47,356 nt of DNA from Pirellulales bacterium (GTDB taxonomy: Bacteria; Planctomycetota; Planctomycetia; Pirellulales; JAIMBC01), in the NCBI GenBank assembly GCA_023511675.1, contig JAIMBC010000009.1, positions 1-47,356 of the forward strand. Reading direction: 5' to 3'. Shown in pieces: positions 3,185 to 14,838 of the stretch (position 1 is the first letter of the stretch; each line of letters starts with the position of its first letter). Both the position numbers and the translations under genes were made by a program. The notes below the pieces were generated by a model that saw only the letters and a program-made list of their open reading frames with translations, had not been told where the DNA came from and did not search any database.

Positions 3185-3387
3185 AGCCGCACCGCAGCAG
3201 GCGCCCGTGCCGGCAAGGGGGCGCGTGCTGCAACTCCTGCCGCATGAGGTACCGCAGCATGCCGCACGTCAACGCCATCAGCTTTCGCGAGGGCCGCAGT
3301 GTCGGGAGAATCTGCCATCTGGTGCGCGCGTGGTGGTGGCCGTGGGGAAACAAAGCAGTGGCGGCTGGCGGCTGCCGCAACGGAGGT

Positions 3388-3546
3388 ATGGCCGACGCGG
3401 CGGATGCGCTTGCATGGCTTGCGCGCGGGCAGCTCCGGCCCGTGATCGTCGCGCGCTTTGCCTTGGAGCAGATCAACAAGGCGTTCGAGCTTGTGCGCAG
3501 CGGCGAGGTCGTGGGATGCGTGGTGATGACGATAGCCGATCAATAG
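3388..3546 (+). pseudogene. remnant of the C-terminus of a zinc-dependent alcohol dehydrogenase
   Basis: ALAWLARGQLRPVIVARFALEQINKAFELVRSGEVVGCVVMTI resembles the last ~45 residues of MDR/zinc ADHs (xxGKLxPVVxxRFPLEEINEAFELLRSGEVVGRxVL); no Rossmann or catalytic domain upstream in any frame that I could recognise. Confidence 0.55.
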
Positions 3547-3931: not shown

Positions 3932-4927
3932 ATGACGACAACCAAGTTTGAGGTGAAGAAGCACGGCTTTCACTTTGACAATGGCACGTTTCGCACTTCG
4001 GTGGGGCCGTTCCCGTGCAGCGTGCTGTGCGGGGGCATGTCGTACTCGGCCCTCGATTACTTCAAGTGCGGTATCAGGGTGCCCGAACTCACCAAGGCCC
4101 CGGCAGAAGGCAATCCGCTGGAAAAATATCTCTACCGCCGGCAAATGACGGCGCACTACTACACCTGGCACCTGTTTCTGGCGGCCTGGTCCGCGCCCAT
4201 CCCCCTGCTCGGCGTGACCAGCAGCCTGGTGCAAGGGAGCATGAAGGAACTCGATTACTACCTGTCCAGCGAGGGGCCGCTGGTGATGTGCCTGTTCGAG
4301 AACATGGGTACCGGCCACCACGTGCTCGCCATCGGCTGCGACAAGGCGAAACAGCGCATCGAGCTGTACGACAACAACCATCACGACCGCAACTGCAACC
4401 TGACGTACAAGAACGGCATCTGGCAGCATTCTCTCTCGAGCACAAAGTGGAAGGGTTGGTTTCTGGATTGGGGCCATTACACCGACGGCACGCGCCTGCC
4501 GCCCCTCTCCTGGCGGTTCTGCAAGAAATGCCACAGCCTGGTGACCACGAGCTTTGGCCAGACCGGCAAGTGCCACGCCGGCGGCTCTCACTCACATAAT
4601 CTGGTGTTCGAGTACTTTCTGCCCTGCTTCGTCAACGAGGGGGAGCGCGGCTGGCGCGTGTGCAGCAAGTGCCAGGCCCTGTTCTACAGCCCCAGCGGCC
4701 AGGCCACGGGCTGGTGCGCAGATAGCAACAACCACACGCCCATGAGCCTGGGTAAACAGCTCCTCGAGTTCGGCGTCGATTCCAGCGGGCAGGGAGAGAA
4801 GAAGTGGCACATGTGCAAGCTCTGCTTCGGCCTCTTCTGGGCTGGCAGCGGCAACGGTACCTGCACCGTCGGCGGCACGCACGAACGCTCCAGCAAGCAA
4901 TACGTGGTGGCCCATCGTACGGTGTAG
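3932..4927 (+). CDS. putative papain/C39-like cysteine peptidase-like protein with three C-terminal WxxCxxC zinc-ribbon-like repeats
   Basis: N-terminal GPFPCSVLCGGMSYSALDYF (candidate Cys), GTGHHVLAIG (candidate His), LYDNNHHD (candidate Asn/Asp); C-terminal repeats WRFCKKCHSL..., WRVCSKCQALF..., WHMCKLCFGLF... Confidence 0.65.
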   Translation: MTTTKFEVKKHGFHFDNGTFRTSVGPFPCSVLCGGMSYSALDYFKCGIRVPELTKAPAEGNPLEKYLYRRQMTAHYYTWHLFLAAWSAPIPLLGVTSSLVQGSMKELDYYLSSEGPLVMCLFENMGTGHHVLAIGCDKAKQRIELYDNNHHDRNCNLTYKNGIWQHSLSSTKWKGWFLDWGHYTDGTRLPPLSWRFCKKCHSLVTTSFGQTGKCHAGGSHSHNLVFEYFLPCFVNEGERGWRVCSKCQALFYSPSGQATGWCADSNNHTPMSLGKQLLEFGVDSSGQGEKKWHMCKLCFGLFWAGSGNGTCTVGGTHERSSKQYVVAHRTV

Positions 4928-12369: not shown

Positions 12370-14838
12370 CTAAGAGTGGCAAGGCGTACCGGGGCCGATG
12401 TGCTGTGCGATGGCCTCCTGCAACTGCTCCTCCTCCGTGCGGGCATAAGGCAGGCGGTGCAGCCAGGCCAGAAGAACACAGCCCGCCAGAAAGCCCGCCA
12501 GCACCGTTGGCCAGTTGTAGACGCAACTGCCGCCGGGGGTGCGGCTGACAAGCCACCCCAACAGGGGGGCCTCGGCCGCACGTGCCGCCAACTCGCTGGA
12601 GAACAGGGCCAGCCCGTTATGTACCGCGTGATAGCAGACCGCGGGCAGGAGGCTGCCGCTTTGCACCGCAAGGTAGCCGATCACCAGGCCTACCAGAGCA
12701 GCCACCAGAGACTGTTGGAAGAGGCCGTGGCTCACGCCAAAGAAAAAGCTGGCGGCGGCGATGGCCCACCATTTATGCCCCAGGTGTCTCAGTCCGGAGA
12801 GGATGAAGCCGCGGAAGGCCAGTTCCTCGCAGATGGCTGGCAGGAGGGCCAGCACGAGCAACAGATGCCAGGGAGAGGGTGCCTGGGAAACGTAATGGCC
12901 CAGCGAGGCTGCCAGGCGGTCGTCCAGGTCGTACAGTTCGGTTACGACGACATTGAGACGCATCACGACGGGGTGCAGGGCCACGGCGAGCAGCACGGCG
13001 GCGGGAAGGCAGGCGGGGTGCGGCAGGCGCAGCAGCAGCGTGCTACGGGGGCTGCGGGTGAGCATCACGGTCATTAACAGGGGGGGTGTTGCGACCACGG
13101 CGAGTTGGATGACGACGGCGGCGCGGGCAAACTCTCCGAAGGACTGCGGCGTGGGCAGGTGCAGGCTGACGTAGAACTGCAAGATGAGGATCAGCACGCC
13201 GCAAAACACGGCGGCCGGCGCGCTGGGGGTGTCATGGCGGTCTCGCAGGAGCTGTCGGAACCAGAGACCGAGGTGCAGCCGCTCGCTTTCTCGGAACAGC
13301 ACGCTCTCTCGATTGAACTGGTCGATGGCCCAGCGCACAGCCAGCAAGCAGCAGGCTGTCGTCACACCGACCACAGGCGCGAGGTACCGCAGGGCTTCGA
13401 GGTAACTTCCTTGCAAGAGAGCGTGCAGCAGCAGCACCACGCCCGTAACGGGAATCAGGCTGTTGCCCAGGTTCAATTCCACGCTGGGCGCCAGGGGGAG
13501 GATCATCAGCGGCATGATGACCATCACCAGCGGCATCAGATAGTACTGCCCTTCCTTGGTGCTGCGTGCAAAGGCAGCCAGCGCCAGGCACAGCGCGCTG
13601 AACAGGGCGGACATGGGCAGCAGCGCCAGCGCCAACCAGAGGGGCGTAAGCGGCGGCGGCGGGCCCACGTGGGGCAGATAGCTCATCAGCAACGAGCCCG
13701 TCAGCCCGATGGAGAGCACGTTCAACAAGGCAGTAAACACGCTGAACAACATGACCGTGCAGAGCTTGCCCCAGACAATCTCGCTGCGCTGGGCAGGGCT
13801 GGAGAGGAGCGTTTCCAGCGTGCCACGCTCTTTTTCGCCCGCACACAGGTCGATGGCTGGATAAAAGGCACCGGTGAGCGCCCAGATCAGCAGCAAGAAC
13901 GGCAGCAGATTGGCCCACATGCCGGCACTACGGTGGGCGGGGGGCGCCACGTCGTGCTCCGAGATTTCAAAGGGCCGCACTGCCTGTGCGGGAAGCTGGC
14001 GCGCGGCGAGATTGCGGCGGGCGACCTCTTCTCGCCACGCTTGCAGCACCGGCGCAAGCCGGACCTCGTAGGTGAGCGTCGACTTGTCATCCGCCGTGTT
14101 GTAGTAGATTTCAAAGCGCGGCAGCTCCCCCGCCTCTGGCAGCGTGGCAGCGGAGCTTGGGGCAGCGGCCTGTGCAGGGCTAGCGCGGTGTGCGGTGTTC
14201 GTGCCGACAGCAGCGGCGTCCGCGGAGGCGCGTTCTTCCGGGGGGGCAGCGGCATCGCCTGCGATCCGCGCCCGGGAGACGGCAGACGGCTGGGGTGTTT
14301 CCGCGCCGTCCCGGGCCGAGCGGCTCTGCGAAGAAGGAGCGCGCCCAGCGGCAGCAGCCTGCTGGGGAAGAGCTGGCTCCCGCCGGCTCGGCTCCTCGAC
14401 GGGGCAAGAAGCTGCCAGGCGTTCGCGCATGGCCGCCAGCCGTTTACCGAAGCCCGGCGGAAAGCAGACGACCACGTGCGCCGTTCCTTCTGCCAGTGCG
14501 CGTTGCGCCTGCACGGCGGTCGGCACGCTTGGGGCGGATGCCAGTTCCACACGCAAGAGCTGGCTGGCCGCCGTCCGCTCCGCTGGATCGCCGGCGAACA
14601 GATCGCGGGCAAAGCGGCCGTTCTCGATGAGCGGCGGTTCGTCGGGAAGTTCCTCCGCGCCCAGAATCAGTACCCGCGTCGGCCGCTGGCGCACGAATTG
14701 CAGCAACTGCAACAGGCTCATGCCCAACAGCGGATACAGCAGCAGCGGCAGCACGGCGATCATGAACAGCGTCCGCCTGTCGCGAAGCTGATCCCGCACC
14801 TCCCGGCAGAAAATCAGGCGTACGTTCGACCAGCTCAT
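12370..14838 (-). CDS. ABC-2 / Na+-efflux-type (NatB-like) permease fused to a C-terminal CPBP intramembrane metalloprotease domain
   Basis: N-terminal [28 protein letters not shown] and [27 protein letters not shown] (ABC-2); C-terminal [39 protein letters not shown] (CPBP EExxxR, FxxxH, HxxxN motifs). Confidence 0.88.

What the first reader, a model, noticed from the sequence alone, without database searches (positions are those of the whole stretch)
3932..4927. Putative cysteine peptidase-like domain fused to a triplicated WxxCxxC zinc-ribbon-like module
Seen directly: the N-terminal half has a candidate catalytic Cys in CSVLCGGMSYSALDYF (nt ~4028), a candidate His in GTGHHVLAIG (nt ~4316) and LYDNNHHD after it. 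This Cys-His-Asn/Asp order resembles papain/C39-like folds. The C-terminal half has three repeats starting with WRFCKKCHSL (~4511), WRVCSKCQALF (~4652) and WHMCKLCFGLF (~4805), each with CxxC, an aromatic-rich stretch, G-x-C and a downstream His. No signal peptide is obvious. Inference: an enzyme plus binding module, perhaps a toxin/effector or self-processing protein. It sits beside an eroded ADH fragment and long non-coding spacers, consistent with an acquired locus.
Basis: partly seen in the sequence, partly recalled or inferred. Interest (0 to 1): 0.72.

Follow-up and report, generated by a model that had tools for sequence, protein, structure and literature searches.

The report
Papain-like enzyme with triple-zinc module
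This is a real bacterial gene for a papain-type cysteine enzyme joined to three tandem Cys-Cys-Cys-His (probably zinc-binding) repeats; it belongs to a widespread family absent from the family libraries searched, whose other members carry the same enzyme domain joined to sugar-binding modules.

Summary
The gene (3932-4927, 331 aa) has no Pfam, NCBIfam, PHROG, PADLOC or PDB sequence match, yet it is not an orphan. Its N-terminal domain (about 1-190) belongs to a family found in at least nine bacterial phyla. C33, H129 and N149 are identical in 62 of 62 aligned members, and D147 in 59. AlphaFold2 models the domain confidently with C33 opening a helix and H129 on the next sheet. Its best structural matches are mostly papain-like enzymes, but none reaches E 0.001. 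Relatives weakly match Peptidase_C39_2. The C-terminal half is a separate mobile module: 34 of 34 repeats from 11 proteins keep CxxC...C...H. The unit is three repeats; a six-repeat protein is a duplicated triplet. Three other genomes have the same enzyme-plus-triplet architecture. Other relatives carry ricin-type, mannose-binding, tectonin, PLL-like or LysM modules instead. The best reading is a papain-like hydrolase aimed by an exchangeable binding module, working like the fungal chimerolectin MOA. A role against predators or competitors is inference only. Codon usage is host-like and there is no conserved neighbour or immunity gene. Zinc binding, the triplet's fold and the substrate remain untested.

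The parts
3932..4927 (+). Gene for a 331-aa protein: papain/C39-like domain plus three-repeat CxxC..C..H module
   Evidence: three other genomes encode the same full architecture
3932..4501 (+). Papain-like (C39-like) cysteine hydrolase domain, residues 1-190
   Evidence: 62-member alignment; AlphaFold2 with block pLDDT mostly 88-97; Foldseek; PF13529 weak matches in 23/62 members
3962..3982 (+). N-terminal family signature HGFHFDN (residues 11-17)
   Evidence: G12 and N17 invariant among rows that cover them, F15 60/62
4028..4030 (+). Candidate nucleophile C33 in CGGMSYSALDYF
   Evidence: C33 G34 G35 M36 D42 Y43 invariant in 62/62; C33 opens helix 33-45 in the model
4316..4318 (+). Candidate catalytic H129 in GHHVLAIG
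   Evidence: 62/62; on strand 128-137
4370..4378 (+). Candidate third catalytic residue: D147 or N149 in YDNN
   Evidence: D147 59/62, N149 62/62; the C39_2 profile match ends at about this motif in relatives (alignment not printed)
4511..4927 (+). C-terminal triple-repeat module
   Evidence: same module with other partners in L003, L004, L005, L092, L107, L110
4511..4651 (+). Repeat 1: W194, C197, C200, C214, H220
4652..4804 (+). Repeat 2: W241, C244, C247, C262, H268
4805..4924 (+). Repeat 3: W292, C295, C298, C311, H317

Best explanation
The protein is a two-part hydrolase. The N-terminal domain is a papain-like (C39-like) thiol enzyme using C33, H129 and D147/N149, most likely a peptidase. 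The C-terminal domain is built from three tandem repeats, each probably holding one zinc with CxxC..C..H, and most likely binds or anchors the protein to a surface or polymer, as the lectin modules do in its relatives. It would thus work like a chimerolectin: the binding half chooses the target and the thiol enzyme acts there. Status of the steps: conserved triad and fold, shown by computation; modular swapping with lectin-type domains, shown; zinc, inferred from ligand conservation; binding role of the triplet, inferred from module exchange; an outside target such as a predator or competitor, speculative (about 0.3). Approximate likelihoods: papain-like enzyme domain 0.9; three metal sites 0.75; enzyme-plus-targeting-module logic 0.6.
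For: C33/H129/N149 identical in 62/62. AlphaFold2 is confident on the N-domain. Foldseek's best matches include AvrPphB, AvrRpt2, GtgE, cathepsin S, PCAT1 C39 and phytochelatin synthase. 23/62 members match Peptidase_C39_2, best E 7.8e-5, over the half that should hold His and Asp. Fusions to RicinB_lectin, B_lectin, Tectonin, LysM, PAN, Fascin/MIR and DUF346. 34/34 repeats keep W, CxxC, C and H. Same full architecture in L052, L065 and L109. Block duplication of the triplet in L107. The module occurs apart from the enzyme beside an NHL propeller, a matrixin metalloprotease and a Tat signal.
Against: No activity data. No Foldseek match below E 0.001, and TM-scores are low because the query includes a poorly modelled C-terminal half. 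The module fold is unresolved (pLDDT 56). P0001, L052, L065 and L109 show no obvious signal peptide, so an outside target needs another route of release. The family also has 17 catalytic-domain-only members under 270 aa, so a binding module is not always needed.
Confidence: 0.6

Rival explanations
1. Papain fold but not a peptidase: a transpeptidase, amidase, transglutaminase or acyltransferase using the same Cys-His-Asp/Asn site.
For: Foldseek also returns phytochelatin synthase, glutathionylspermidine amidase and Tse1. PMC10318531 places BtrH_N acyltransferases and phytochelatin synthase close to C39/C70.
Against: The weak sequence match is to Peptidase_C39_2. Many of the top structural matches are peptidases.
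Confidence: 0.3
2. Antibacterial polymorphic-toxin-like effector with cognate immunity.
For: Papain-like toxin domains occur in such systems; Foldseek lists a papain-like toxin/immunity pair (9l5u) and a CdiA-CT (8ssm) among its hits.
Against: No conserved neighbour beyond same-lineage synteny; the flanking intervals of P0001 have no family-supported small gene and then housekeeping genes; no delivery domain found; no PADLOC match.
Confidence: 0.12
3. Intracellular enzyme with a triple zinc-finger nucleic-acid or protein-binding tail; not secreted, not directed outward.
For: No signal peptide in P0001, L052 or L065 by a crude scan, or obvious in L109. Zinc modules often bind nucleic acids or proteins.
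Against: The same module sits behind a Tat-type signal (L005), an extracellular-type NHL propeller (L003) and a matrixin (L004). Relatives carry lectins and about 33 of 81 have signal-peptide-like starts.
Confidence: 0.25
4. The repeats are not metal sites but disulfide-bonded units.
For: Three Cys per repeat could form disulfides if exported.
Against: Three Cys plus an invariant His per repeat is an odd number for disulfides and fits a four-ligand metal site (34/34).
Confidence: 0.15

Closest known systems
Marasmius oreades agglutinin (MOA) type chimerolectins (PMC8408931, PMC4764322, PMC8244254)
   Same: Papain-like thiol protease joined in one chain to a threefold binding domain (ricin-type beta-trefoil); toxicity of MOA needs both parts.
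   Different: MOA is fungal, has the lectin first, and is Ca2+/Mn2+-dependent. P0001 has no sequence match to any Pfam trefoil or MOA family and bears CCCH repeats.
Peptidase_C39_2 (PF13529)
   Same: Same order Cys..His..Asp; 23 of 62 members give weak matches, over the C-terminal half of the profile in those inspected.
   Different: P0001 itself has no match, and the members scanned one by one lie below the 24-bit cut-off.
C58/C70 effectors AvrPphB and AvrRpt2, and GtgE (structures 1ukf, 6hqz, 5kdg)
   Same: Best Foldseek matches of the model; papain-like enzymes.
   Different: No sequence similarity detected; those are type III effectors, and nothing in this locus suggests type III delivery.
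Zinc-ribbon families (Zn_Ribbon_1, AccD zinc ribbon)
   Same: WxxCxxC knuckle; L004 matches Zn_Ribbon_1 above cut-off.
   Different: Only one CxxC knuckle per repeat, followed by C and H; matches cover about 11-13 residues; the two planctomycete AccD hits were false positives.

Membership tests
Papain-like cysteine peptidase superfamily (clan CA) | Catalytic Cys at the N-terminus of a helix, followed by His on the sheet and Asn/Asp on the next strand, in that order | tested here: met
   C33 opens helix 33-45, H129 on strand 128-137, D147 just after strand 142-146; residues conserved. Atom distances not available.
Papain-like cysteine peptidase superfamily (clan CA) | Overall fold match to solved members | tested here: inconclusive
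   Top Foldseek hits are mostly papain-like, but best E is 0.013 and TM is low with the full-length query
Papain-like cysteine peptidase superfamily (clan CA) | Thiol-dependent hydrolase activity | not testable with these tools
   needs purified protein
Peptidase_C39_2 (PF13529) | Score above the Pfam gathering cut-off | tested here: not met
   P0001: no match at E 10; relatives scanned one by one reach 13-21.8 bits against 24
MOA-type chimerolectin | Ricin-type beta-trefoil lectin domain | tested here: not met
   No trefoil match in P0001; some relatives have RicinB_lectin. Whether the triplet is a trefoil is unresolved
MOA-type chimerolectin | Papain-like domain with intact catalytic residues | tested here: met
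MOA-type chimerolectin | Ca2+/Mn2+-dependent proteolysis | not testable with these tools
   biochemistry needed
Classical zinc ribbon | Two Cys knuckles (CxxC...CxxC) on a beta ribbon | tested here: not met
   Pattern is CxxC...C...H in 34/34 repeats
Polymorphic toxin | Adjacent conserved immunity gene and delivery region | tested here: not met
Anti-phage defence protein (PADLOC) | Match to a known defence family | tested here: not met

The most novel reading that the evidence does not exclude
The triplet is a new threefold-symmetric, zinc-pinned binding domain (a metal-stabilised counterpart of the beta-trefoil lectin), and P0001 is one branch of a large bacterial class of chimerolectin-like peptidases that use interchangeable binding modules against predators or competitors.
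Probability: 0.22. Interest if true: 0.75.

Novelty: new variant of a known kind. Interest (0 to 1): 0.5.

Why it matters
Neither half is described in the curated libraries searched here, although the enzyme domain occurs in at least nine phyla with an invariant active site, and the triplet module moves between quite different partners. If the chimerolectin reading holds, it would connect bacterial and fungal defence proteins built on the same plan and give a testable class of secreted or stored peptidases with swappable targeting domains. Proposing two new domain families (a C39-like CGGM peptidase and a CCCH triplet) would annotate many proteins now called hypothetical.

Tried and rejected
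Viral contigs gave no relatives of the enzyme domain, and the phage collection none of P0001 or the module; only two viral contigs carry the module, one of them a single repeat. PDB profile searches found no relative of the enzyme domain and only AccD zinc ribbons for the module. Two planctomycete module hits proved to be AccD. A five-member alignment was too divergent for the pattern search. The second AlphaFold2 job, on the module alone with five sequences, stayed at pLDDT 56 and was not used for fold matching. Neighbour clustering found only same-lineage synteny and common families. An antiphage role and recent acquisition by composition were considered and not supported. No paper describing either half was found among the papers searched.

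Full report
OBSERVATION. The reading frame 3932-4927 encodes 331 residues without a stop, and every landmark in the finding sits at the stated nucleotide. The three repeats begin at W194, W241 and W292. Shuffling the protein 100,000 times never gave two copies of the W..C..C...C...H pattern. Neither Pfam nor NCBIfam recognises the protein, and PHROGs, PADLOC and PDB sequence searches are also negative.

THE ENZYME DOMAIN. A first relative came from another planctomycete, then one from a Paraburkholderia plasmid. A three-sequence alignment was used to scan the genome collection and gave 80 loci from Bacteroidota, Pseudomonadota, Actinomycetota, Chloroflexota, Acidobacteriota, Planctomycetota, Armatimonadota, Bacillota and Myxococcota. 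In a 62-row alignment C33, G34, G35, M36, D42, Y43, R70, H129 and N149 never vary, and D147 is kept in 59 rows. The order Cys, His, Asp/Asn is that of papain and C39 peptidases. Peptidase_C39_2 is matched weakly by 23 of the 62 members; in the members inspected the match covers the C-terminal half of that profile and stays below its cut-off.

STRUCTURE. AlphaFold2 with this alignment gives high confidence over most of residues 1-190 (weaker at about 21-30 and 81-100) and low confidence beyond. C33 starts helix 33-45, H129 lies on strand 128-137, and D147 follows strand 142-146. The best Foldseek matches are mostly papain-like enzymes, among them AvrPphB, AvrRpt2, GtgE, cathepsin S, the C39 domain of PCAT1 and phytochelatin synthase. 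None reaches E 0.001 and TM-scores are low, which is partly explained by the poorly modelled second half.

THE TRIPLET MODULE. The same three repeats occur after an NHL propeller in Paraburkholderia terrae, before a matrixin metalloprotease in Spirosoma, behind a Tat-type signal in Streptomyces, after another domain on a contig in the viral collection, and in further genomes. All 34 repeats in 11 proteins keep W, CxxC, C and H. One gammaproteobacterial protein has six repeats, and each repeat matches the one three places later best (1-4, 2-5, 3-6), so the triplet duplicates as a block and is the domain. One viral-collection contig has a single repeat, which is a caution. The conserved ligands imply metal sites; the fold was not resolved.

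FULL-LENGTH RELATIVES. Three other genomes encode the enzyme followed by the triplet: a planctomycete MAG (L065), Thiorhodococcus minor (L052) and another genome from the class of a Pirellula MAG (L109). They share 37-39% identity with P0001, with all triad and ligand positions conserved. In a tree of the enzyme domain built before L109 was found, P0001, L065, L052 and L068, an alphaproteobacterial protein with a LysM tail, form one supported group, so tail domains have been exchanged. Other relatives carry ricin-type, mannose-binding, tectonin, fascin/MIR-like, PAN, LysM and PLL-like repeats. About 33 of 81 start with a signal-peptide-like segment by a crude scan; P0001, L052 and L065 do not, and L109 shows none by eye.

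CONTEXT. P0001 is the only copy in its genome and is absent from 39 close relatives. The triplet has no true match in the other planctomycete genomes of the phylum sample (with; one further weak hit, L096, contains stop codons). The gene lies between a truncated alcohol dehydrogenase remnant and glnA, with no conserved partner gene. Codon usage matches the host, so any transfer is old.

HOW IT PROBABLY WORKS. The triplet holds the protein on a target and the papain-like domain hydrolyses something there. This is inferred from module exchange: where P0001 has the triplet, many relatives have a sugar-binding module. The fungal protein MOA is built on this plan, and its nematode toxicity needs both halves (PMC8408931). 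P0001 is not a member of the MOA family by sequence. Whether its target is a predator, a competitor, a host or detached polymer is unknown.

VERDICT. The functional idea is plausible and unproven. Interest 0.5.

Noticed in passing
L012, L021, L037, L049 and others, C-terminal to the enzyme domain: 35 of 80 relatives contain a DDLRG motif, usually followed by GGDNW and RFTG; it looks like an uncatalogued domain of about 130-150 residues, often in two copies, for which one search reported no Pfam family.
   Followed up: partly
L064, L070, L071, L073, L079, L086, L088, L089: Short family members of about 210-235 residues consist of the enzyme domain alone, without an obvious signal peptide; most are from Actinomycetota and Chloroflexota.
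   Followed up: no
L107:1086-2114 (-): Six-repeat version of the triplet that arose by block duplication of three repeats.
   Followed up: yes
L006:3357-6701 (+): Paraburkholderia caribensis protein with the enzyme domain flanked on both sides by lectin-like propeller repeats; the gene is not annotated in the plasmid record.
   Followed up: no
window 12370-14838 (-): ABC-2 transporter permease fused to an Rce1-like (CPBP) membrane protease domain.
   Followed up: no
window 3379-3525 (+): Remnant of a zinc-dependent alcohol dehydrogenase C-terminus (PF13602 positions 83-133).
   Followed up: partly
one family member not identified: One relative matches Aegerolysin (E 6e-4), a family linked to membrane-active proteins.
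   Followed up: no
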